Shown here: piece after piece, positions 6,174-63,565 of the stretch
How the letters are laid out: every line of letters begins with the position of its first letter
Position numbering within the stretch: the first letter of the stretch is position 1
From: Pseudofrankia coriaricola
GTDB lineage: Bacteria > Actinomycetota > Actinomycetes > Frankiales > Frankiaceae
DNA: 64,000 nt
Direction of reading: 5' to 3'
Assembly: GCF_001854805.1 (NCBI RefSeq)
Contig: NZ_MBLO01000191.1
Span: 1-64,000 of the forward strand
Made by a program: the position numbers and the translations under genes
Notes under the pieces: generated by a model
Seen by the model: only the letters and a program-made list of their open reading frames with translations
Told to the model about the DNA's origin: nothing
Database searches by the model: none

Positions 6174-7832
6174 TCACTCGCTCGATGCGCCGCGGTCGTG
6201 CTTGTCGGTGATGGTGGACGACTCGGGACGGTAGATGACCAACCCGCCCGTGCCCTCCCGTTTGGCCGCGTACATTGCCTCGTCGGCTTGGTGAAGGAGA
6301 AGGTCGGGAGTGGTCGGCTGGGCGGAGGAGTCGAGGATGACCAGGCCGACGCTGGCTCGTGGGAGGTACGGCTGACCCGCTAGCAGGCATGGCTCTCGGA
6401 CGGCTTCCGCCAGTCGTTCACCCGTACTTCTGACGTCCGGTTCGTCGCCGTCCAAGATGACGCCGAACTCGTCGCCGCCGAGGCGAGCGACCGTGTCCGC
6501 CGCGCGGGTTCCCGCCCGCAGCCGATCCGCACTGATCTTGAGTAGCTCATCCCCGGCGGCGTGCCCGAAGGCGTCGTTGACCTGCTTGAACCTGTCAAGA
6601 TCCAGGAAAATGACGGACACCGGCGCGATGGGGGATCTGGTGCCATTGACCTTATGGCCGAGTGCTCGCTGTAGCCGTCGCGCGAACAGGGCCCGGTTCG
6701 CCAACCCTGTCAGCGGATCGTGGTACGCCTGGTAACGGAGCCGTCTTTCGCGTTTCTGGATCTCGGCGAGGAGCTCGGTGTTCTCGGCTAGCGTGAGCAT
6801 CTGCCGGACCAGTGCCACTAGCAGCAGCCCTACCGTACCGTAGGCCTCGAACCCGTCCAGCGGCCCGCCAGCGAGCAGTTTGACACCGACCAGTAGGCCC
6901 GCGATGGCGAGCGCCGCATACGGTAGTACGACATGGGCCCACATGGCCCGCGGGCCGGGCGGCGGTGTCAGCTCATGGTCTGGCGTTGCTTCCCGGACTG
7001 GTACCAGCGCCGAGAGAAACAGCAGCAGATCGGCGATGGTGAATCCTATGTAGGCCGCCGCCGGAGGGTTGTAGATTTCGCGGGCGGCGAGGTAGACGAA
7101 GACGTTGCCGCTGACGGCGAAGATCAGCAGTCCTGTGCCGAGCAGCGCCAGCGTCGTCGGAGAGTGGGGCCGGCGGAAGCATGCGACGAGCGCGACCGCC
7201 GTGGTCAGGATCAGACTTCCAGCCGGGGTGCCCGCGACCACCAGTAGCTGCGTGAGGTCGGGCGTCCCCGCCTTGACGATCGCGCCGATCACCGTGGCCC
7301 ACTCGATCAGGGCGATCGAGCCGACGATCAGCACGCAGTCCAGCAAAGTTACGACGTACCAGCGATAGCCGCCACTCCGCGCCGACCGGGTGCTTTCGGC
7401 CTTGTTCTCCATGGGGTCCGTGGGCAGTGACAGCAGGCCCGCCAGCGCCACCGCATAGAGGACGAGAAAGACCGCCTGCGCCGGAGAATAACGGCCTATC
7501 GCGGAGCCGCCGGCCGCCATCGCCTGCGTCGTTCCGACGCTGATGCCAACCCCACCGGCCGCGGTGAGACCGATGAGAAGCCGCCAACGCCGCTCGGCGC
7601 CGCGGGTACGGCGGGCGGTCCAGAAGCACGCGGCGGCCGTGGCGATCAGGACGGCTCCCGACGTGGCGTTGATGGCGGCCCCTGCTGCCTGCCGGTCGAG
7701 GAGTACCGCGAAAGTCACGAGCAAACCGGTGATGGCCGCCGATGCCGCGACCGCATACCGAAGAACCCGCGGCGCGCGACCCTGACCGGCTGGACGCCGC
7801 GGACTTGGTGCGGCGCCGCGTGCTCCCGACAT
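6174..7832 (-). CDS. Membrane-bound diguanylate cyclase (GGDEF), paralogue 1
   Basis: A 552-residue protein with about ten predicted membrane helices over residues 25-340, then a short coiled-coil link and a C-terminal GGDEF domain. The active site is intact: DPLTGLANR at about 373, and GGDEF at about 452-456. An RAAD motif five residues before it matches the RxxD inhibitory site. It should make cyclic di-GMP from two GTP and be product-inhibited. The membrane domain contains a Y-R-W-Y-x-x-T-L-L-D-C-x-L-I-V-G block shared with the neighbour at 8300-9964, so the pair arose by duplication. No EAL domain is present. GGTGGAG lies just before the ATG. Confidence 0.9.
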   Translation of the reverse strand: MSGARGAAPSPRRPAGQGRAPRVLRYAVAASAAITGLLVTFAVLLDRQAAGAAINATSGAVLIATAAACFWTARRTRGAERRWRLLIGLTAAGGVGISVGTTQAMAAGGSAIGRYSPAQAVFLVLYAVALAGLLSLPTDPMENKAESTRSARSGGYRWYVVTLLDCVLIVGSIALIEWATVIGAIVKAGTPDLTQLLVVAGTPAGSLILTTAVALVACFRRPHSPTTLALLGTGLLIFAVSGNVFVYLAAREIYNPPAAAYIGFTIADLLLFLSALVPVREATPDHELTPPPGPRAMWAHVVLPYAALAIAGLLVGVKLLAGGPLDGFEAYGTVGLLLVALVRQMLTLAENTELLAEIQKRERRLRYQAYHDPLTGLANRALFARRLQRALGHKVNGTRSPIAPVSVIFLDLDRFKQVNDAFGHAAGDELLKISADRLRAGTRAADTVARLGGDEFGVILDGDEPDVRSTGERLAEAVREPCLLAGQPYLPRASVGLVILDSSAQPTTPDLLLHQADEAMYAAKREGTGGLVIYRPESSTITDKHDRGASSE

Positions 7833-7914: not shown

Positions 7915-7927
7915 TGAACACTCATTA

Positions 7928-7996
7928 GTGCTTCTGGGGACGGAGCCTCCGGAGGTGCGAAGGAGGAGCATTTTCGCACCTCCTTTGGCCCTCTAG
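7928..7996. repeat. Diverged copy of the 70-bp hairpin repeat
   Basis: It matches the three copies near 59.3 and 63.5 kb in its outer parts (CTGGGGAC and CCTTTGGCCCTCTAG) but differs in the stem. Its arms are GGAGGTGCGA and TCGCACCTCC around an AGGAGGAGCATTT loop. The changes relative to GGGCGTGCGA and TCGCACGCCC are paired, so the 10-bp stem is preserved. It lies in the gap between the two paralogous GGDEF genes. Confidence 0.75.
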
Positions 7997-8299: not shown

Positions 8300-9964
8300 T
8301 CAACCAGTGCTTGCGGCGAGGGCGGGGTGGTAGACGACGAGTCTGCCGGCTCGTTCCCGCTTGGCTGTGTACATGGCGAGGTCGGCTTGGTGGAGCAGGA
8401 TGTCGGGGGTGGCGGGTCGGGTGGCGGCGCTGTCGAGGGTGACCATGCCCAGGCTGGCGCTAGGGGTGTAGCGCTGTCCGACCAGCAGGCAGGGCGCCTG
8501 GATGGCGAGGGCGAGCCGCTCGCCGACGTGGCGGGGGTCGTCGGGGCCGCCGCCGTCGAGGATGACGGCGAACTCGTCGCCGCCGAGGCGGGCGGCGGTG
8601 TCGACCGCGCGGGTCTCCGTCAGCAGCCGGTCGGCGATGATCTTGAGGAGCTCGTCGCCGGCGGCATGGCCGAACGTGTCGTTCACCCGCTTGAAGCCGT
8701 CGAGGTCCAGGAACAGGAGGGACACTCGTGTGTCGGGGGCGTAGTCGGCGGTGATCCTGGAGACGTCGCCATCGGGGACGCAGGCGAGGACCCGCTGTAG
8801 ACGTCGGGTGAACAGCGCCCGGTTCGCCAGGCCGGTCAGGGGGTCGTGGAATGCCTGGTGGCGCAGTTGCTGCTGCTGTTCCCGGGTCTCGGTGAGCAGC
8901 CGGGTGTTCTCGGCGACGGTGACCATCTGTCGGATCAGGGCCACCACCACCAGCGCGATCATGCCGTAGGTCTCGAACAGGTCGAGCCGGACGCCGGCTA
9001 CCCGCTTGTCGACGACCAGGAGGCCCGCGGCCACGAGCGCCGCGTAGGGCAGCACGGCGTGTGCCCACATCGCCCGCGGGCCGGGTGGAGCGGGGTCGTC
9101 CGGGTGCGTAGGGCGCGGAACGGGGGCGAGTGCGGCGATGAAGATCAGCAAATAGGCGAGGGCGAACCCGATCATGCCCCAGGGCGGCAGCTCTAGCCCA
9201 TGCACCGCCGCTATGTAGGGCATGAGATTGGTGGTCACGGCGTAGGCCAGCAGGCCGGTGCCGAGCAGGGCCAGTACCGCCGGGGCGCGCGGCCGGCGGA
9301 AGGTGGCGATCAGCACAACCGCGGTGGCGAGGACCAGGCCGGCTACCTGGTGGATCATGGCGAGCTCGAACGTCTCGGTGTGGTGGCCTGCCTGGACGAG
9401 CGAGGCGAGCGTCATCCCCCACTGCAGCAGGATGATCGAGCCGACGATCAGCAGGCAGTCCAGCAGGGTGATCGTGTACCAGCGGTAGGCGCTGTGCCGC
9501 CGCCGGCCCGGACCGCCGCCGTGCTCACCGACCCGGTCGGTGGGCACGCACAGCAGACCGGCCAGAGCCAGGACGTAGAAGATGAGGAAGGCGGCGTACC
9601 CGGCGGAGATGCCGCCCTGGTGGGGCATGTGGCCGGCCAGGAGCGCCGGCGTCACCGACAGGCTCGCCAACATCGCGCCCGTGGAGGTGATGGCGATGAG
9701 CACCCGCCAGCGGCGCTCCGCGCCGTGTACCCGCCGGGCGGACCAGAAGCAGGCGATCGCGGCGGCGAGCTGGATGGTGGCGTTGACGAGGGTCGTGGCG
9801 GCGCGGGCGGGGTGCAGCTCCAGCAGCGCCGCGAGGGCGACATCGAGCCCGAGGAGCGCTACGGAGGCGATGAGGGCATACCGCAACAACCATGGCGCGC
9901 GGCCCAAACTGGCCGGACGCCACAGCCTGTCTGCGGCGTCGACGACGCCGCGGAGTCCGGACAT
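8300..9964 (-). CDS. Membrane-bound diguanylate cyclase (GGDEF), paralogue 2
   Basis: A 554-residue protein with the same plan as paralogue 1: about ten membrane helices, the shared YRWYTITLLDCLLIVGS block, then GGDEF at about residues 461-465 with the RxxD inhibitory site RAVD five residues earlier. It should synthesise cyclic di-GMP. I chose ATG 9964 (MSGLRG) because it aligns with the MSGARG start of paralogue 1; an upstream codon at 9997 is also open. The frame of the membrane domain is well conserved but the first 20 residues and the loop before DTRVSLLFLDLD differ. An inverted repeat lies 33-48 bases upstream of the start. Confidence 0.9.
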   Translation of the reverse strand: MSGLRGVVDAADRLWRPASLGRAPWLLRYALIASVALLGLDVALAALLELHPARAATTLVNATIQLAAAIACFWSARRVHGAERRWRVLIAITSTGAMLASLSVTPALLAGHMPHQGGISAGYAAFLIFYVLALAGLLCVPTDRVGEHGGGPGRRRHSAYRWYTITLLDCLLIVGSIILLQWGMTLASLVQAGHHTETFELAMIHQVAGLVLATAVVLIATFRRPRAPAVLALLGTGLLAYAVTTNLMPYIAAVHGLELPPWGMIGFALAYLLIFIAALAPVPRPTHPDDPAPPGPRAMWAHAVLPYAALVAAGLLVVDKRVAGVRLDLFETYGMIALVVVALIRQMVTVAENTRLLTETREQQQQLRHQAFHDPLTGLANRALFTRRLQRVLACVPDGDVSRITADYAPDTRVSLLFLDLDGFKRVNDTFGHAAGDELLKIIADRLLTETRAVDTAARLGGDEFAVILDGGGPDDPRHVGERLALAIQAPCLLVGQRYTPSASLGMVTLDSAATRPATPDILLHQADLAMYTAKRERAGRLVVYHPALAASTG

Positions 9965-9996
9965 CACTACATCCCAGTGGTAGCCTACCGCAATCA

Positions 9997-10012
9997 ACTG
10001 AATTCATTCAGT
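9997..10012. promoter_or_regulatory. Inverted repeat upstream of GGDEF paralogue 2
   Basis: ACTGAAT-TC-ATTCAGT is a perfect 7-bp inverted repeat with a 2-base centre, in an AT-rich spot 33 bases before the ATG at 9964. Its size and position suit a dimeric repressor or activator. No matching element is seen upstream of paralogue 1. Confidence 0.4.
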
Positions 10013-19924: not shown

Positions 19925-20485
19925 GTGACCACACTTCCGGACCGGCCGAACACCGCGCTGCTCGTGGTGGACGTGCAGAACGCGGTCGTCAACAGCGCGT
20001 ACCAACGGGACGCGGTCATCGCGAACGTGGCCTACCTGGTCGAGAAGGCGCGGCGGGACCAGGTGCCGGTCATCTGGGTGCAGCAGACCGACGAGCACCT
20101 CGTGCCGGAGAGCGACGGCTGGCGGATCGTCCCCGAGCTGCTCCCGGGCGACGAGGAGCGGCGCATCGAGAAGCGCTACGGCGACTCCTTCGAGGACACG
20201 GGCCTGGCGGGCGTGCTGGCCGGGCTGCGTGTCGGGCGGCTCGTCGTGGTCGGTGCGCAGACCGACCAGTGCATCCGCTCGACGCTGCACGGCGCGCTCG
20301 CCCGGGGCTACGACGCGACGCTGGTCAGCGACGCCCACACCACCGAGGACACCACGGCGTGGGGCGCCCCGCCGCCGGAGGCGGTCATCGCCCACACCAA
20401 CCTGTACTGGACCTACCAGACAGCCCCGGGCCGCACGGCCGGCACCGTCGAGACCAAGAACGTCGACTTCGCCGGCGCGTCCTGA
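19925..20485 (+). CDS. Isochorismatase-family cysteine hydrolase
   Basis: A 186-residue protein with the family's catalytic triad: Asp in ALLVVDVQNAVV, Lys in EKRYGDSFEDTGL, and Cys in VVGAQTDQCIRSTL. A cis-peptide-like segment and the RGYDATLVSDAHTT strand follow as usual. Members hydrolyse amides or isochorismate; the substrate here is not predictable. The GTG at 19925 follows GGAGGCGGGCA, a fair ribosome-binding site. It is isolated, with the PoxB remnant upstream and a regulator fragment downstream on the other strand. Confidence 0.85.
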   Translation: MTTLPDRPNTALLVVDVQNAVVNSAYQRDAVIANVAYLVEKARRDQVPVIWVQQTDEHLVPESDGWRIVPELLPGDEERRIEKRYGDSFEDTGLAGVLAGLRVGRLVVVGAQTDQCIRSTLHGALARGYDATLVSDAHTTEDTTAWGAPPPEAVIAHTNLYWTYQTAPGRTAGTVETKNVDFAGAS

Positions 20486-57837: not shown

Positions 57838-58293
57838 GACAGAACCGCGGCCGCCGTCGCAACCAGGCGACGGGCTACGCCTTGGGCCCGCTGGTTGTGG
57901 CGGCCGAAAGCGATCTTCGCTGCGCCGGCCGGGTGTGCGCGCCGTCGCTCGTGCGTAGCGGTCGGGGTCACATTTGCGACCGCATCAAGCGAGCGGTGGC
58001 AGAGAACCTCGAGGTGCCGAAGAAGATCCAGGAGAGCTAGTCCCGCCCCAGCAAATGTTCACCCCGTCGCTGGCACCATCGGAATCAAGATCAGTCAGAC
58101 GTTGTGTGTCATCGGCGGCGCGTAACGCCTGACTGATTCTGGAAAGATCGTTCCGAAATGAGGGGAACGTTGCCGGAGGCGGTCCTAGTCCCTGATCTAC
58201 AGTGATCGCAAGCTGGGGCGCGCGCTCGGCGCGCCGCAGTGCCCTGACGCCGCCGTGACGCCCGGGCCGAGAGGCCCCTACCCAGCCCACGTT
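57838..58293. other. Intergenic region before the HTH-PASTA gene
   Basis: No complete gene. A plus-strand frame ending at 58040 finishes ICDRIKRAVAENLEVPKKIQES, which reads like the end of a real protein but matches no family I know and has no start signal; it may be a remnant. Otherwise nothing is seen. Confidence 0.3.
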
Positions 58294-59181: not shown

Positions 59182-59254
59182 CCGTGCCCGGCGCCGCGGG
59201 ACGCGGCCCGGCGCCCGGCCGCCTGGTGTCTGGTACCTGGCCGCCGTCCCGTCG

Positions 59255-59324
59255 GTGATCCTGGGGACAACGGCCGCCGGGCGTGCGAAGGAAGATCATT
59301 TTTGCACGCCCTTTGGCCCTCTAG
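59255..59324. repeat. 70-bp hairpin repeat, copy A
   Basis: Begins GTGATCCTGGGGACAACGGC and ends CCTTTGGCCCTCTAG. Central stem GGGCGTGCGA with TTGCACGCCC, one mismatch in this copy, enclosing AGGAAGATCATTT. It is head-to-tail with copy B and starts 74 bases after the HTH-PASTA stop. Confidence 0.9.
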
Positions 59325-59393
59325 TGATCCTGGGGACAACGGCCGCCGGGCGTGCGAAGGAAGATCATTTTCGCACGCCCTTTGGCCCTCTAG
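59324..59393. repeat. 70-bp hairpin repeat, copy B
   Basis: It has the same sequence as copy A except that the right arm is TCGCACGCCC, giving a perfect 10-bp stem with GGGCGTGCGA. Copies A and B share the final G of CTAG as the first base of the next unit, so they form a true tandem. Confidence 0.9.
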
Positions 59394-60234
59394 CGCGGCG
59401 CCGTCCCACGCTGACGGCGAGGCGTGCTGGGGCGCCGGCTGGGCCGCCCTCGCGCCTGCCTGCCAGAGGGAATGTTGAAGGTGTCGACATTCGGCGGAAC
59501 TTCGGGCATGATGAAGTGCATTGCCGGCTGTGCCGGCGCGGACCCCCCCGTACCGCGCCGGCATGGTCGGTTTTGTCGTTCCCCGCACGCCAGTCCGCGG
59601 GCTTGGTGCGCGTGGCCGGGGGATGACCTCGCCCGGTGGGGGTAATCGGCCTTCGTGAGGTCTCCGGCCGTGAGCGTGACGGCGGCGGGACCGGTGCCGG
59701 CCGTCGACCGGCACCGCCCTGGCGACGCCGGCGGCGGCGAGCGAGTTCCCCGCCCGGTCGGATGGGCGCCTGCTGGGTGCCCGCGCAGTTCGCCTATCGA
59801 CTGCCCGTGATCATCTGGGTCGGGTGCGTCAGGTCGGCGGTGGAGATCGTCGGGTCCAGGCCCCGGCCGGTCGGCGTGGTGACTTTTCTCGCGGTCGGGA
59901 GGGGAACCTGGGGTAGCTCGGGGGCCATGTCGGGTGAGCGACAGGGCGCCCGGATCGGGCCCGGAGCCGGGCCGCGGGCGGGTCCGCTTCGGGCGCAGGT
60001 GCCCTGGTGAGGTGACCGGGCCGCCGGCGGGGAGCGCTGGTGGGCCGGTCGGCCCGGCGGGGACGGCCGATGGGCCGGGGACGATGTGTCCGATGCCGGT
60101 CAAGCTGGGCGTATGACCTGGCGTTAAGGTAGGGCGTAGGGGGGCAAAGGTGCCGCCGCGAAACGCCGGCAGGCTCGCCGACGGCGTCGGCGGTCATGAT
60201 CGCTCGCTGATCACGAATTCATCATCGCCGCGCC
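59394..60234. other. Long gap before the Rieske oxygenase gene
   Basis: No gene supported on either strand despite several overlapping open frames. It has one 8-bp hairpin, GGTGCCGG at 59693-59700 with CCGGCACC at 59708-59715. Nothing else recognisable was found. Confidence 0.4.
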
Positions 60235-60250
60235 AGGGAGGCTTCCGATC
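60235..60250 (+). promoter_or_regulatory. Strong ribosome-binding site followed by ATC instead of a start codon
   Basis: AGGGAGG at 60235-60241 is followed, after six bases, by ATC at 60248 in frame with the Rieske gene. The 17 codons from there to the first ATG (60299) read IDRNELIDITRRALKIA, which looks like genuine coding sequence, while the ATG itself has no good site. Either ATC is used as a rare start or a normal start has mutated. Confidence 0.5.
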
Positions 60251-60298
60251 GACCGCAACGAGCTCATCGACATCACGCGGCGAGCCCTGAAGATCGCA

Positions 60299-61399
60299 AT
60301 GGACAAAACGACGGACATGATGCCCGGCGAGCGCATCCTTCCGGCCGCGATCTACACCAGCCAGGAGCTTTTCGAGCGCGAGCGCGAATTCGTGCGCAGC
60401 TCCCCGCAGCTGGTCGGCTACCGCTCCGAACTGCCCGGTCCGGGTACGTACACCACCAAGACGGTGATGGACGTCCCGGTGCTGCTCACCCGCGACGACG
60501 AAGGCACCGTCCGCGCGTTCCAGAACATCTGCGCGCACCGGCAGGCCAAGGTCGCCGAGGACTGCGGCGAGGCCGAGCGGTTCACCTGCCCGTACCACGC
60601 GTGGAGCTACAACAACAAGGGCGCGCTGGTCACCTGCCCCGGCCGGGACGGCTTCCCGGCGGTGATGGCGAACAAGCCCGGCCTCACCGAGCTGCCGGCC
60701 GCCGACCACGCCGGCTTCCTGTGGGTCGGCCTCGACCCGGACGGCGGCCCGCTGGACATCGAGGGCCACCTCGGCGAGCTCGGCCCGGAGCTTGCGTCCT
60801 GGGGAATCGGAGACTGGAACTCGGTCGGCGAGAAGGTCCTCGACGCGCCGGTGAACTGGAAGCTCGCGCTGGACACGTTCGGCGAGAACTACCACTTCCC
60901 GACGGTGCACAAGAACACGTTCGCGCTGCTGGTCCGCGGCAACTGCGCGCTGTTCGACACCTATGGTCCGCACCACCGGTTGATCTTCCCGATGCAGAAC
61001 ATCACCGAGCTCGCAGACAAACCGGAGAGCGAATGGGAGCCACTGCACTACTTCGTGGTTATCTATGCGATCTTCCCGAACATCGTCATGTCGGTGACGT
61101 TCATCAACGGTGAGATCTTCCGCGTCTACCCGGGCAGCGGGGCCGGCAACTCGGTGACCGTTCACCAGAACGCCACCACCCTCGACGTCTCCGACGAGGC
61201 GGGCCGCGCGGGCGCGGACGACATCTTCGAGTACGCCCACGCCAGCGTCCGCGACGAGGACTACCCGCTGGCCGCGAAGGCCCAGGCCAACATGGCGTCC
61301 GGCGGGCGTCCTCAGCTCGTCTTCGGCCGCAACGAGCCCGGCCTGCACCACCGCCACGCCAGCATGGAGACGGCCCTGGGTATCAGCCTCGACGCCTGA
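60299..61399 (+). CDS. Rieske [2Fe-2S] ring-hydroxylating oxygenase, alpha-subunit type
   Basis: A 366-residue oxygenase from ATG 60299; 17 more residues if translation begins at 60248. The Rieske cluster motif is ICAHRQ..CPYHAWSY (CxH-x17-CxxH). The non-heme iron site has the conserved bridging Asp and two His in DTFGENYHFPTVHKN. These proteins insert O2 into aromatic or other hydrocarbon substrates or demethylate them, using electrons from a reductase. No reductase or ferredoxin gene is adjacent. The substrate is unknown. The repeat tandem and a long gap precede it. Confidence 0.9.
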   Translation: MDKTTDMMPGERILPAAIYTSQELFEREREFVRSSPQLVGYRSELPGPGTYTTKTVMDVPVLLTRDDEGTVRAFQNICAHRQAKVAEDCGEAERFTCPYHAWSYNNKGALVTCPGRDGFPAVMANKPGLTELPAADHAGFLWVGLDPDGGPLDIEGHLGELGPELASWGIGDWNSVGEKVLDAPVNWKLALDTFGENYHFPTVHKNTFALLVRGNCALFDTYGPHHRLIFPMQNITELADKPESEWEPLHYFVVIYAIFPNIVMSVTFINGEIFRVYPGSGAGNSVTVHQNATTLDVSDEAGRAGADDIFEYAHASVRDEDYPLAAKAQANMASGGRPQLVFGRNEPGLHHRHASMETALGISLDA

Positions 61400-61501
61400 G
61401 CGCTCGCGGCATCCGGCTCCGCCCGACCCGCTCCAGGCCAGCCCCGGCTGACCTGGAGCGCGTTGGTGTGCGGACCAACGGGGTTCTGCGGACCACCGGC
61501 G

Positions 61502-61987
61502 CTAGTCGATCTGCGCGGTGGGCCCGTCGGACAGGCCGGTGTGTTCGGCCTGGCGACGGGTGGCCGCGAGCAGGCGGCGCAGGCCGGCGACGTGGCCGCC
61601 ACTACCGATGACGAGCAGCCGGTAGGTGCGGCCGAGTATGCCAGGGAAGGCGGCCCTGGTCTCGGCGCGCAACCGGGTGCGGCCCCCGCCGGCGTCGTCG
61701 AGCCGGAAGATGAGGGTGTAGTCGGAGAAGCGGTGGCGCCCGGCGAGCATCAGCCGGGAGCCCGGCTCGGCCGCGACAACCCGGAAGCCGACGATCGTCG
61801 ACCCGGTGGCGAGCGGCCGCGGCCCGGACGGCGCGCACTCGGCGCAGCCGACCGCGCGGGCATAACGTTGCGCGCCCGCGCCGCCGAACGACCGGTCCAG
61901 CCGTTCGGCGAGCGCCAGCCAGACGTCCTCGGCGGCGGCGTCGACGACCGTCGCGTGCTCGTCGACGAACGGCAGCTCGGAGATCAC
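61502..61987 (-). CDS. SRPBCC/DUF2867-like protein
   Basis: A 161-residue protein. ISELPFVDEHATVVDAAAEDVWLALAERL at the N-terminus and VGFRVVAAEPGSRLMLAGRHRFSDYTLIFRLD in the middle resemble START/SRPBCC or DUF2867 ligand-binding folds. The C-terminus TRLRAETRAAFPGILGRTYRLLVIGSGGHVAGLRRLLAA is typical of such actinobacterial proteins. It likely binds a hydrophobic ligand. The GTG start at 61987 precedes the first strand; the frame upstream has no similarity. Confidence 0.65.
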   Translation of the reverse strand: MISELPFVDEHATVVDAAAEDVWLALAERLDRSFGGAGAQRYARAVGCAECAPSGPRPLATGSTIVGFRVVAAEPGSRLMLAGRHRFSDYTLIFRLDDAGGGRTRLRAETRAAFPGILGRTYRLLVIGSGGHVAGLRRLLAATRRQAEHTGLSDGPTAQID

Positions 61988-62064
61988 TTCCGCGATTCTC
62001 CCAGCTCCGTGCTCGCCAGGAAACCGTTTGACCCGGAGGCTTTGCCTTCGGCGGAGTCTGCCCG

Positions 62065-63456
62065 CTATGGAAGCCCGCTGGGCGCGAAGACGGCGCCGGG
62101 GTTGAGGATGCCGAGCGGGTCGAGGGCCTGCTTGATGCGCAGCGACAGGTCGAGGACGTCCTGGCCGACCTGGGGGAGCAGCCACGACCGCTTGAGCCGG
62201 CCGACGCCGTGCTCGCCGGTGATGGTGCCGTCGAGGCTGATCGCCAGGTCCATCACCTCGCCGAACGCGAGCCAGGCCCGCTCGGCCGCGGCGGCGTCGG
62301 CGGGGTCGACGACGATCAGCGGGTGGGTGTTGCCGTCGCCGGCGTGCGCGACGACCGCGATCGTGACGTCGCGGGCTGCCGCGATCGCCTCGACGCCCGT
62401 CACCAGCTCCGGCAGCCGGGGCAGCGGGACACCCACGTCCTCCAGCAGCACCGGGCCGAGCCGCTCGATTGCCGTGATCGCGCAGCGGCGGGCGACGACG
62501 AACGCCTCGCCCTCGTCCGGGTCGTCGGTGGCGAGCACCTCACTCGCCCCGGCGGCCTCGCACGCGGCGACCATGGCCCGCAGCTCCTCCTCGCCGGCCC
62601 GGTGGGGGGCGTCCGTGCGGGCGAGCAGCAGCGCCGCGGCGCCGCGGTCCAGGCCCATGGTCAGCATGTCCTCGACCGCGTTGATCGACGTCCGGTCCAT
62701 GAGCTCGAGCATCGCCGGGCGCAGCGCCGAGGTGATCGACAGGACCGCGGCCGTGGCCGCCGCCATGGTCGGGAAGCTCGCGACCAGCGTGCTCGCCGGC
62801 GGCTGAGCGGGCATCAGCCGCAGGGTCGCCTCGGTGATGATCCCGAGCGTGCCCTCGCTGCCGACGAACAGCTTGGTCAGCGACAGGCCGGCGACGTCCT
62901 TGAGCCGCGGCCCGCCGAGCCGGACCGCCGTGCCATCGGCGAGCACCACCCGCAGGCCGAGCACGTAGTCGGTCGTCACCCCGTACTTCACGCAGCACAG
63001 GCCGCCCGCGTTGGTCGCCACGTTGCCGCCGATCGAGCAGATCTCGAACGACGACGGGTCCGGCGGGTACCACAGCCCGTGCTCGGCGGCCGCCCCCTTC
63101 ACCTCGGCGTTCAGCGCCCCGGGCTGGGCGACCGCGATCCTCGTCACCGGGTCGACGTGGACCGCCCGCATCCGCTCCGTCGAGAGCACGATGCCGCCGG
63201 TCACGGCCGTCGACCCGCCGGACAGGCCGGTGCCGGTGCCGCGTGGCACCACCGGCACCCGGTGCCGCGCCGCCCAGCGGACCGCCACCTGCACCTGTTC
63301 GGTCGACTCCGCCCGCACCGCGGCGAGCGGAATCCCGGCGTCGGGATCCGCCGCCCGGTCCCGCCGGTACTTGTCCAGCAGGTCGGGATCCGTCGCCACG
63401 ACACCCGCCGGCAGCGCGTCCACGAGCTCGGCGAGCTCGGCGAGCGTCACACCCAC
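62065..63456 (-). CDS. FAD-linked oxidase of glycolate oxidase (GlcD) type
   Basis: A 463-residue flavoprotein. The PCMH-type FAD domain has VPVVPRGTGTGLSGGSTAV, then PPDPSSFEICSIGGNVATNAGGLCCVKYG, which contacts FAD. The C-terminal cap has VVAHAGDGNTHPLI and GTITGEHGVGRLK, both active-site features of GlcD/D-lactate dehydrogenase. It oxidises a 2-hydroxyacid. GlcE and GlcF partners are absent. The GTG start 63456 has GGGAGG six bases upstream. Hairpin repeat copy C lies 40 bases beyond it. Confidence 0.92.
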   Translation of the reverse strand: MGVTLAELAELVDALPAGVVATDPDLLDKYRRDRAADPDAGIPLAAVRAESTEQVQVAVRWAARHRVPVVPRGTGTGLSGGSTAVTGGIVLSTERMRAVHVDPVTRIAVAQPGALNAEVKGAAAEHGLWYPPDPSSFEICSIGGNVATNAGGLCCVKYGVTTDYVLGLRVVLADGTAVRLGGPRLKDVAGLSLTKLFVGSEGTLGIITEATLRLMPAQPPASTLVASFPTMAAATAAVLSITSALRPAMLELMDRTSINAVEDMLTMGLDRGAAALLLARTDAPHRAGEEELRAMVAACEAAGASEVLATDDPDEGEAFVVARRCAITAIERLGPVLLEDVGVPLPRLPELVTGVEAIAAARDVTIAVVAHAGDGNTHPLIVVDPADAAAAERAWLAFGEVMDLAISLDGTITGEHGVGRLKRSWLLPQVGQDVLDLSLRIKQALDPLGILNPGAVFAPSGLP

Positions 63457-63495
63457 GGTCCGCCTCCCAGTTCCCGCCCCCGCTGTGTCCCGTCA

Positions 63496-63565
63496 GTGAT
63501 CCTGGGGACAACGGCCGCCGGGCGTGCGAAGGAAGATCATTTTCGCACGCCCTTTGGCCCTCTAG
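63496..63565. repeat. 70-bp hairpin repeat, copy C
   Basis: Identical to copy B over the 70 bases, including the perfect stem GGGCGTGCGA/TCGCACGCCC and the CTCTAG end. It lies in the promoter region of the FAD oxidase gene, about 4.1 kb from copies A and B, and in the same orientation. Confidence 0.9.

What the first reader, a model, noticed from the sequence alone, without database searches (positions are those of the whole stretch)
59255..63565. Dispersed 70-bp repeat with a covarying hairpin, four copies in the window
Copies at 59255-59324, 59324-59393 and 63496-63565 are nearly identical. A diverged copy at 7928-7996 changes several stem bases, and the changes are paired (GGGCGTGCGA/TCGCACGCCC versus GGAGGTGCGA/TCGCACCTCC). 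Compensatory change argues that the folded stem, as RNA or extruded DNA, is selected. All copies are intergenic and end in CTAG. This resembles a REP-like or other non-autonomous element, mobilised by an enzyme encoded elsewhere, or a structured transcript end.
Basis: partly seen in the sequence, partly recalled or inferred. Interest (0 to 1): 0.72.

Follow-up and report, generated by a model that had tools for sequence, protein, structure and literature searches.

The report
Jumping 69-letter DNA hairpin, mover unknown
A 69-letter DNA hairpin has been copied into about a hundred spots of a Frankia-like soil bacterium's genome, and into the genomes of some relatives, although the enzyme usually held responsible for spreading such hairpins was not found in most of the genomes richest in it.

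Summary
The repeat is 69 bp (68 in the diverged copy). The window's genome (genus Pseudofrankia, inferred) has at least 148 matches; 17 of 35 genomes of its family have some. In 119 aligned copies the stem covaries strongly: two base pairs occur as GC, CG, AU and UA. The repeat is mobile: at window 63497 two genomes of the genus keep the uninterrupted site TC-AG-ACG where this genome has exactly 69 extra bases. Insertion follows CCCNTYAG on the left flank only (72 flanks), with no target duplication beyond a shared AG. The element's own right end is CCCTCTAG, so it is itself a target, which explains head-to-tail arrays.

The suggested IS200/REP transposase is not supported: Y1_Tnp is absent from five of the seven genomes with 20 or more copies. 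A strand-specific transcript end is not supported; a host role of the fold is not excluded.

Best reading: a non-autonomous, orientation-specific mobile hairpin, REP/MITE-like, moved in trans by an enzyme that I did not identify. An HUH-type single-strand enzyme is likeliest. The class is known; the family, its target rule and the missing known transposase look new.

The parts
7921..7928 (+). target motif left of the diverged copy (CTCATTAG)
7929..7996 (+). 68-bp element, TGCTTC subfamily, between two GGDEF genes on the minus strand
59248..59255 (+). target motif left of the two-copy array (CCCGTCGG)
59256..59324 (+). 69-bp element, copy 1 of a tandem pair: left arm 59256-59271, GGCC 59272-59275, upper stem 59279-59291 with 59299-59311, GGCC 59315-59318, right end CTCTAG 59319-59324
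59325..59393 (+). 69-bp element, copy 2 of the tandem pair (junction CTCTAG|TGATCC)
63489..63496 (+). target motif CCCGTCAG
63497..63565 (+). 69-bp element, absent at the same place from G001 (empty site ...CCCGTCAG|ACGTTAGG...) and G004 (...CCATCAG|ACGTTAGG...)

Best explanation
The repeat is a non-autonomous mobile element of 69 bp. Shown: it inserts without loss or duplication of target (apart from an AG shared by target and right end), in one orientation, just 3' of CCCNTYAG; and its hairpin (a 4-bp GGCC stem, a conserved internal loop KCC/TTT and a 9-13-bp upper stem) stays paired across the family while its letters change. Inferred: an enzyme acting in trans recognises the folded hairpin on one DNA strand, cuts next to the AG at both ends and joins the element to the 3' end of a target motif, as HUH enzymes do with single-stranded DNA. 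Because the right end CCCTCTAG is itself a target, and the left target survives each insertion, new copies land beside old ones and give head-to-tail arrays. The enzyme was not found.
For: At least 148 matches in the own genome; 17 of 35 family genomes and 5 of 7 genera have matches. At 63497 an exact 69-bp difference from G001 and the same junction in G004, and a second place, 76627, where G001 lacks the element. Left-flank motif in 72 flanks: -7 C .89, -6 C .85, -4 T .81, -3 Y .95, -2 A .93, -1 G .97; right flank (71) near background. Covariation in 119 aligned copies from 12 genomes: 195 double-change cells against 72.5 when shuffled and at most 14 when slid. Arrays at the element's own right end.
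Against: No enzyme and no autonomous relative were found. Seven identical copies on seven contigs carry one C.A opposition in the stem, so one mismatch on the top strand does not stop spreading; on the other strand it is a G.T pair. Strand bias expected for lagging-strand insertion was not seen with a weak proxy, the GC skew of flanks. Guide-target pairing of the IS200/IS605 kind (CTGGGG with TYAG) does not hold in G030. The element has one hairpin, not two. Orthologous copies are mixed: by eye 14 true pairs, of which 5 show a paired double change, so selection at the site is not excluded.
Confidence: 0.56

Rival explanations
1. A Y1 (IS200/IS605 or RAYT) transposase moves it, present earlier or on an unassembled or lost piece.
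For: REP-like build: hairpin with a TAG-containing tag, one-sided target, intergenic preference; TnpA-REP is reported to cut at CT next to a GTAG-tagged hairpin (PMC8266576, passages), and CT/AG is where this element's right end meets its flank. Of the 17 genomes with copies, 6 have a Y1_Tnp match over the cut-off: G007, G010, G025, G030, G031, G032.
Against: No Y1_Tnp match at E<=1 in G000-G006, G022, G033 and G034 (G000), which include five of the seven genomes with 20 or more copies. Over the cut-off, Y1_Tnp is found in 6 of 17 genomes with copies and in 11 of 18 without. 24 identical copies among 100 read point to recent movement.
Confidence: 0.15
2. A double-strand site-specific recombinase, for example of the IS110 kind with a bridge RNA supplied in trans, inserts a circular form at a dinucleotide core AG (CT on the other strand).
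For: AG is shared by target and right end and no longer duplication is seen; the left half-site is long and the right side shows only avoidance of T, recalling the 7-bp LD and 2-bp RD varied in IS621 donor tests; a 22-bp donor is reported not to recombine until the full-length RNA was supplied (PMC11208160, passages cut short).
Against: IS110 targeting pairs both sides of the core, and the right flank here is near background. Nothing in that mechanism, as I know it, requires the covarying hairpin. A home-made IS110 motif found nothing in 1.15 Mb of own-genome loci (overlaps counted), but the motif was recalled and had no positive control.
Confidence: 0.17
3. A conjugative relaxase of the MobF (TrwC) kind mobilises it, the hairpin plus CTCTAG acting like an origin of transfer.
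For: 7 TrwC matches in the own genome and 1-6 in each of G001-G006; hairpin followed at short distance by TAG resembles an oriT (recalled).
Against: No TrwC match in G030 (132 copies at E<=0.1; assembly 81% complete), G031, G032, G033 or G007, and 8 genomes with TrwC have no copies.
Confidence: 0.06
4. A host element (terminator, mRNA or DNA structure) whose fold is kept for the host, multiplied by some recombination.
For: Preference for gaps between genes, few divergent (promoter) gaps, 8 of 69, stable fold, and paired double changes in 5 of about 14 orthologous pairs.
Against: No wobble bias for the top strand, 44 G.U against 66 A.C cells; orientation to neighbouring genes not fixed, 22 ++ against 18 --; precise insertion; many orthologous copies with unpaired stem changes.
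Confidence: 0.06

Closest known systems
REP elements and BIMEs with RAYT (TnpA-REP)
   Same: Short hairpin in high copy number, mostly intergenic, tag containing TAG at its foot, tandem groups, mosaic forms with a second hairpin.
   Different: No Y1_Tnp match in most copy-rich genomes; sharp left and right ends over 69 bp; an 8-nt target motif on one side; CTAG at the 3' side of the hairpin.
CGTC-tagged REPs (PMC3733652, passages)
   Same: Palindromic repeats reported to lack a dedicated transposase.
   Different: Different tag; words beginning with Frankia, Actinobacter or Streptomyces do not occur in that paper's main text.
MITE-like relatives of IS200/IS605 (recalled; no paper on them read)
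   Same: Non-autonomous, no target duplication, insertion 3' of a short motif, one orientation.
   Different: One hairpin only, no parent element found, guide-target pairing not supported.
Helitron and IS91 ends (recalled)
   Same: 3' end with a hairpin shortly before CTRR, one-sided insertion, tandem copies possible.
   Different: Target is not A/T or GTTC-like; the Y2_Tnp search rang nowhere, even in controls, so the enzyme side is untested.

Membership tests
REP with RAYT | High-copy extragenic hairpin | tested here: met
   At least 148 matches; 73 of 97 copies in gaps between called genes
REP with RAYT | GTAG tag at the 5' foot of the hairpin | tested here: not met
   Tag is CTAG/CTCYAG; read on the other strand CTAG precedes AGGGCC
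REP with RAYT | RAYT/Y1 transposase in the genome | tested here: not met
   0 matches in G000; the control search does find E. coli. G000 is a draft of 280 contigs
IS200/IS605 non-autonomous derivative | Insertion 3' of a short motif without target duplication | tested here: met
IS200/IS605 non-autonomous derivative | Hairpins at both ends | tested here: not met
   One hairpin in the 69-mer
IS200/IS605 non-autonomous derivative | Guide letters that pair with and covary with the target | tested here: not met
   In G030 C-type guides go with A targets 12 times and G targets 3 times; in G004 C with G 7, C with A 4, T with A 3, T with G 1, which leans the other way (the boundary choice there favoured AG)
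IS200/IS605 non-autonomous derivative | Parent element with the same ends | tested here: inconclusive
   None among the 110 right ends read; one search counts 138 tails, so some were not read; draft assembly
IS110-type | Both sides of the core in the target are recognised | tested here: not met
   Right flank near background except few T at +1 (.03)
IS110-type | Matching IS110 recombinase element in the genome | tested here: inconclusive
   Recalled motif, no control, 1.15 Mb of loci only
IS91/Helitron-type | Y2 transposase in the genome | tested here: inconclusive
   0 of 35, but the control also rang nowhere
Any Rfam family | Score over the gathering cut-off | tested here: not met
   0 matches in the window; one weak CPEB3 hit on a long form, 18.6 against a cut-off of 35

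The most novel reading that the evidence does not exclude
These hairpins are mobilised by a not yet described enzyme: a hairpin-reading recombinase that needs only an 8-nt motif on one side of the target, joins at AG without target duplication, and works in bacteria in whose genomes no Y1 transposase is detected. This would be a second route to REP-like repeats.
Probability: 0.3. Interest if true: 0.8.

Novelty: new variant of a known kind. Interest (0 to 1): 0.58.

Why it matters
How REP-like repeats spread when no transposase is linked to them is open; PMC3733652 says so for CGTC repeats (passages). Here the spread looks recent (24 identical copies among 100 read), the ends and the target are defined to within 2 bp, and related genomes keep the empty site. 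An assay for the mover could therefore be set up directly with a 69-bp donor and an 8-nt target. If the mover is new, it is also a very small insertion system with one-sided sequence choice.

Tried and rejected
Rfam: nothing at gathering score. A CPEB3/HDV-like ribozyme hit on one long form was weak; after the last helix the sequence reads GGAGG where the model has CGAAU, and the active cytosine of HDV-like ribozymes (recalled) is missing. Rejected.

Y1_Tnp: no match in the own genome. TrwC relaxase: distribution does not fit. Y2_Tnp: uninformative, the control was silent. IS110 motif of my own: no hit, uninformative. Genes beside clustered copies: open frames of L204 and L208 were listed only; no family search was made on them.

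Guide-target pairing as in IS608: suggested by G004 copies, not borne out by G030. In that call the left boundary was chosen partly by looking for AG, so its flank logos are biased; those are not, because boundaries there come from the element.

Strand bias by GC skew: none in 96 own, 31 G030 and 16 G004 copies. Phage and plasmid records: no match; viral contigs: no match of a tail pattern. These collections may leave out near records. Distribution outside the order is untested: the order held only the same 35 genomes.

Site 7929 could not be compared with relatives (paralogous GGDEF genes). At 59256 the relatives lack the array, but about 95-110 bp around it are missing or different as well.

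Rows dropped: 10 of 110 rows had no recognisable left end (three long forms, three pieces cut by contig ends, three diverged copies, and L094, probably a chance match). In one search, 222 cores were reduced to 122 distinct arm pairs with at least 9 of 13 pairs formed, which favours paired arms. A2 was fitted to the R1 structure, so its counts lean towards that structure; the slid controls and the gapless arm count guard against this.

Orthologous copies: I first read six pairs by eye (output cut at 20,000 of 105,084 characters) and thought that nearly all changes were unpaired. A check lists 18 pairs. Four of these (L064/L330, L333/L332, L351/L120 with arms GGCGCCGCG, L215/L108) look like coding DNA and not elements. 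Of the other 14, five hold at least one paired double change and most of the rest carry unpaired changes. I therefore withdrew the claim that the fold is kept by movement alone, and moved 0.04 from the best explanation, 0.02 of it to the host-element rival. The per-genome mismatch means printed include such false matches and are not used.
Full report
WHAT WAS REPORTED. Four copies of a 70-bp repeat with a hairpin whose stem changes are paired. I checked the sequence directly. The unit is 69 bp, TGATCCTGGGGACAAC-GGCC-GCC-GGGCGTGCGAAGG-loop-TTTTCGCACGCCC-TTT-GGCC-CTCTAG, at 59256-59324, 59325-59393 and 63497-63565, with a 68-bp relative at 7929-7996. Rfam has no match in the window at gathering score.

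COPY NUMBER. In the window's own genome (G000, 11.2 Mb, 280 contigs) a BLAST search lists 58 matches from 40 scored candidates. The tail TTTGGCCCTCTAG with up to one mismatch occurs 138 times, against 14 for the reversed pattern. The covariance model R1 gives 148 matches and R2 gives 145. They include array members; the loci I held gave 96-97 separate places. Several contigs end inside arrays (C40, C57, C65, C106, C135, C255, C264, C265), so true arrays are longer.

WHO HAS IT. 17 of 35 genomes of the family, in 5 of 7 genera, have a match at E<=0.001; 17 of 35 again with R2 at E<=1e-5. A plain BLAST of the 69-mer finds it in 4 of 8 genomes of the genus. Counts: own 148, G004 88, G001 61, G022 27, G003 22; the five genomes of genus g7 have 12-122. 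Of 13 genomes of genus g2 only G010 has matches (3). G001 is Pseudofrankia asymbiotica NRRL B-16386, judged by an element in a contig of the same length, 201,500; so the window is probably from Pseudofrankia. The order held only the same 35 genomes, so the wider distribution is untested. No match was found in phage or plasmid records, and none of a tail pattern in viral contigs.

COVARIATION. On 36 copies (A1) 45 cells changed on both sides against 16.0 in shuffles. On 119 copies from 12 genomes (A2) it was 195 against 72.5, the covariation score was 0.282 against 0.131, and slid structures gave at most 14 double changes. Two pairs occur in all four Watson-Crick forms: GC 42, CG 39, AU 18, UA 5, and GC 36, CG 31, AU 16, UA 15. 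A count without alignment freedom, on 122 distinct arm pairs, gave 89% pairing at five stem positions against 74% when 3' arms were shuffled within genomes (maximum 77%). In the same set top-strand G.U cells number 44 and A.C cells 66, so nothing favours a top-strand RNA; a DNA fold, or either strand, fits as well. One C.A opposition is carried by seven identical copies on seven contigs, so a single mismatch on the top strand is tolerated; on the other strand it is a G.T pair.

IT MOVES. At 63497 the own sequence is GTGTCCCGTCAG|69 bp|ACGTTAGG; G001 has GTGTCCCGTCAGACGTTAGG and G004 GTGTCCATCAGACGTTAGG. Against G001 nothing is lost and nothing is duplicated. The AG can be assigned to the target or to the element, so the cut is known to within 2 bp. 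At 76627 of the same contig G001 also lacks the element; the left junction is less exact there. At 86634 the same target holds a TGATCC-type copy in the own genome and a TGCTTC-type copy in G001 and G004, as expected if a target is used repeatedly. At 59256 the relatives lack the array but the flanks differ too, and 7929 could not be compared.

TARGET. I read 110 right ends in the loci held at that point; 100 had a recognisable left end. Leaving out array-internal joints, 72 distinct left flanks show C at -8 (.61), -7 (.89) and -6 (.85), T at -4 (.81), T or C at -3 (.95), A at -2 (.93) and G at -1 (.97). The 71 right flanks are near background except for few T at +1 (.03). Left tetranucleotides: TTAG 27, TCAG 24, CTAG 5, others 16. 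Element ends: CTAG in 43 of 53 distinct elements. Left and right are therefore not a duplicated target. The right end CCCTCTAG fits the target rule, which accounts for arrays with a period of about 67-70.

WHAT KEEPS THE STEM? A comparison of orthologous copies in four genomes of the genus gives 14 pairs that I take for true elements, out of 18 listed. Five hold a paired double change; most of the others hold unpaired changes (for example L074/L107 with 2 and 3 mismatches, L246/L274 with 1 and 3). Array homogenisation or a second insertion could explain some of the paired ones. The result does not decide between selection through movement and selection at the site.

PLACE IN THE GENOME. In the window, one copy pair follows a PASTA-domain gene, one copy lies 40 bp before an FAD-oxidase gene, and one lies between two GGDEF genes. 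With a crude gene caller, 73 of 97 own copies are intergenic while 74% of the DNA in long own stretches is called coding; contexts relative to the element are ++ 22, -- 18, convergent 21, divergent 8. So copies avoid genes and divergent gaps, but have no fixed orientation to transcription.

WHICH ENZYME. Y1_Tnp (IS200/IS605, RAYT) has no match in G000, none at E<=1 in G001-G006, G022, G033 and G034, and one each in G007, G030, G031 and G032. Over the cut-off it is found in 6 of the 17 genomes with copies and in 11 of the 18 without. MobF relaxase is present in the own genome (7) but not in G030-G033. Y2_Tnp rang nowhere, controls included, so that search says nothing. No long element with the same ends was seen among the right ends read. 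The 'long forms' (L015, L076, L088, L100) look like 69-mers with a second hairpin family inserted; that family is widespread on its own in Pseudofrankia and g7.

READING. A non-autonomous mobile hairpin, REP- or MITE-like, moved in trans. The one-sided target, the absent duplication, the fixed orientation and the conserved fold point to strand transfer of folded single-stranded DNA by an HUH-type enzyme, but the usual one is missing. IS110-type recombination at an AG core is the main rival for the chemistry. PMC8266576 (passages) reports cleavage by TnpA-REP at CT next to GTAG-tagged hairpins; PMC11208160 (passages) describes the two-sided targeting of IS110; PMC3733652 (passages) describes CGTC repeats without a dedicated transposase and does not hold the word Frankia; PMC2770080 (passages) surveys insertion sequences of three Frankia strains, and the passages shown name no such repeat. 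Paper searches: Pseudofrankia with repeat (2 of 2 listed), Frankia with tandem repeat and hairpin (2 of 2), REP with RAYT and Actinobacteria (none), Frankia with REP terms (20 of 4,194), with MITE terms (15 of 1,502) and with insertion sequence terms (12 of 504). None of the titles and abstract starts listed describes this element; the unlisted papers and the papers outside this library were not seen.

Noticed in passing
L088 (-) 1893, L015 729, L302, L304-L308: A second dispersed hairpin family (GGACCTCCCAGATCGCTTCGCGATCCGGCAGGAACCCC) gives strong matches in G000-G006 and in g7 genomes, also in genomes almost free of the 69-mer (G002, G006), and sits inside the 69-mer in the long forms, at a similar place in two genera.
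   Followed up: partly
window 58034-58190: Another dispersed repeat with inverted repeats (ATCAGTCAG...CTGACTGAT, CGTTCC...GGAACG): parts of it match nine other places in G001 and G004 (sequence). No tRNA.
   Followed up: no
window 6174-7832 and 8300-9997 (minus strand): Two neighbouring paralogous GGDEF genes; further repeats of the same type near 17.7-18.3 kb suggest a third.
   Followed up: no
L022 (+) and L077 (-), array units: Two units end in CCCGTTAG instead of CCCTCTAG, that is, with letters typical of a target site; possibly a trace of exchange between target and right end.
   Followed up: no
L038, L040, L083, L085: Units of one array share private changes, and inner joints (CTGG, CCAG) differ from the last right end (CTAG), so arrays also grow by local duplication.
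   Followed up: partly
L136 and L108 (G003:C5), L123 (G033), L125 and L144 (G010): Tandem arrays of shorter units (about 60-67 bp) with the same core hairpin; the one in G003 runs into an assembly gap.
   Followed up: no
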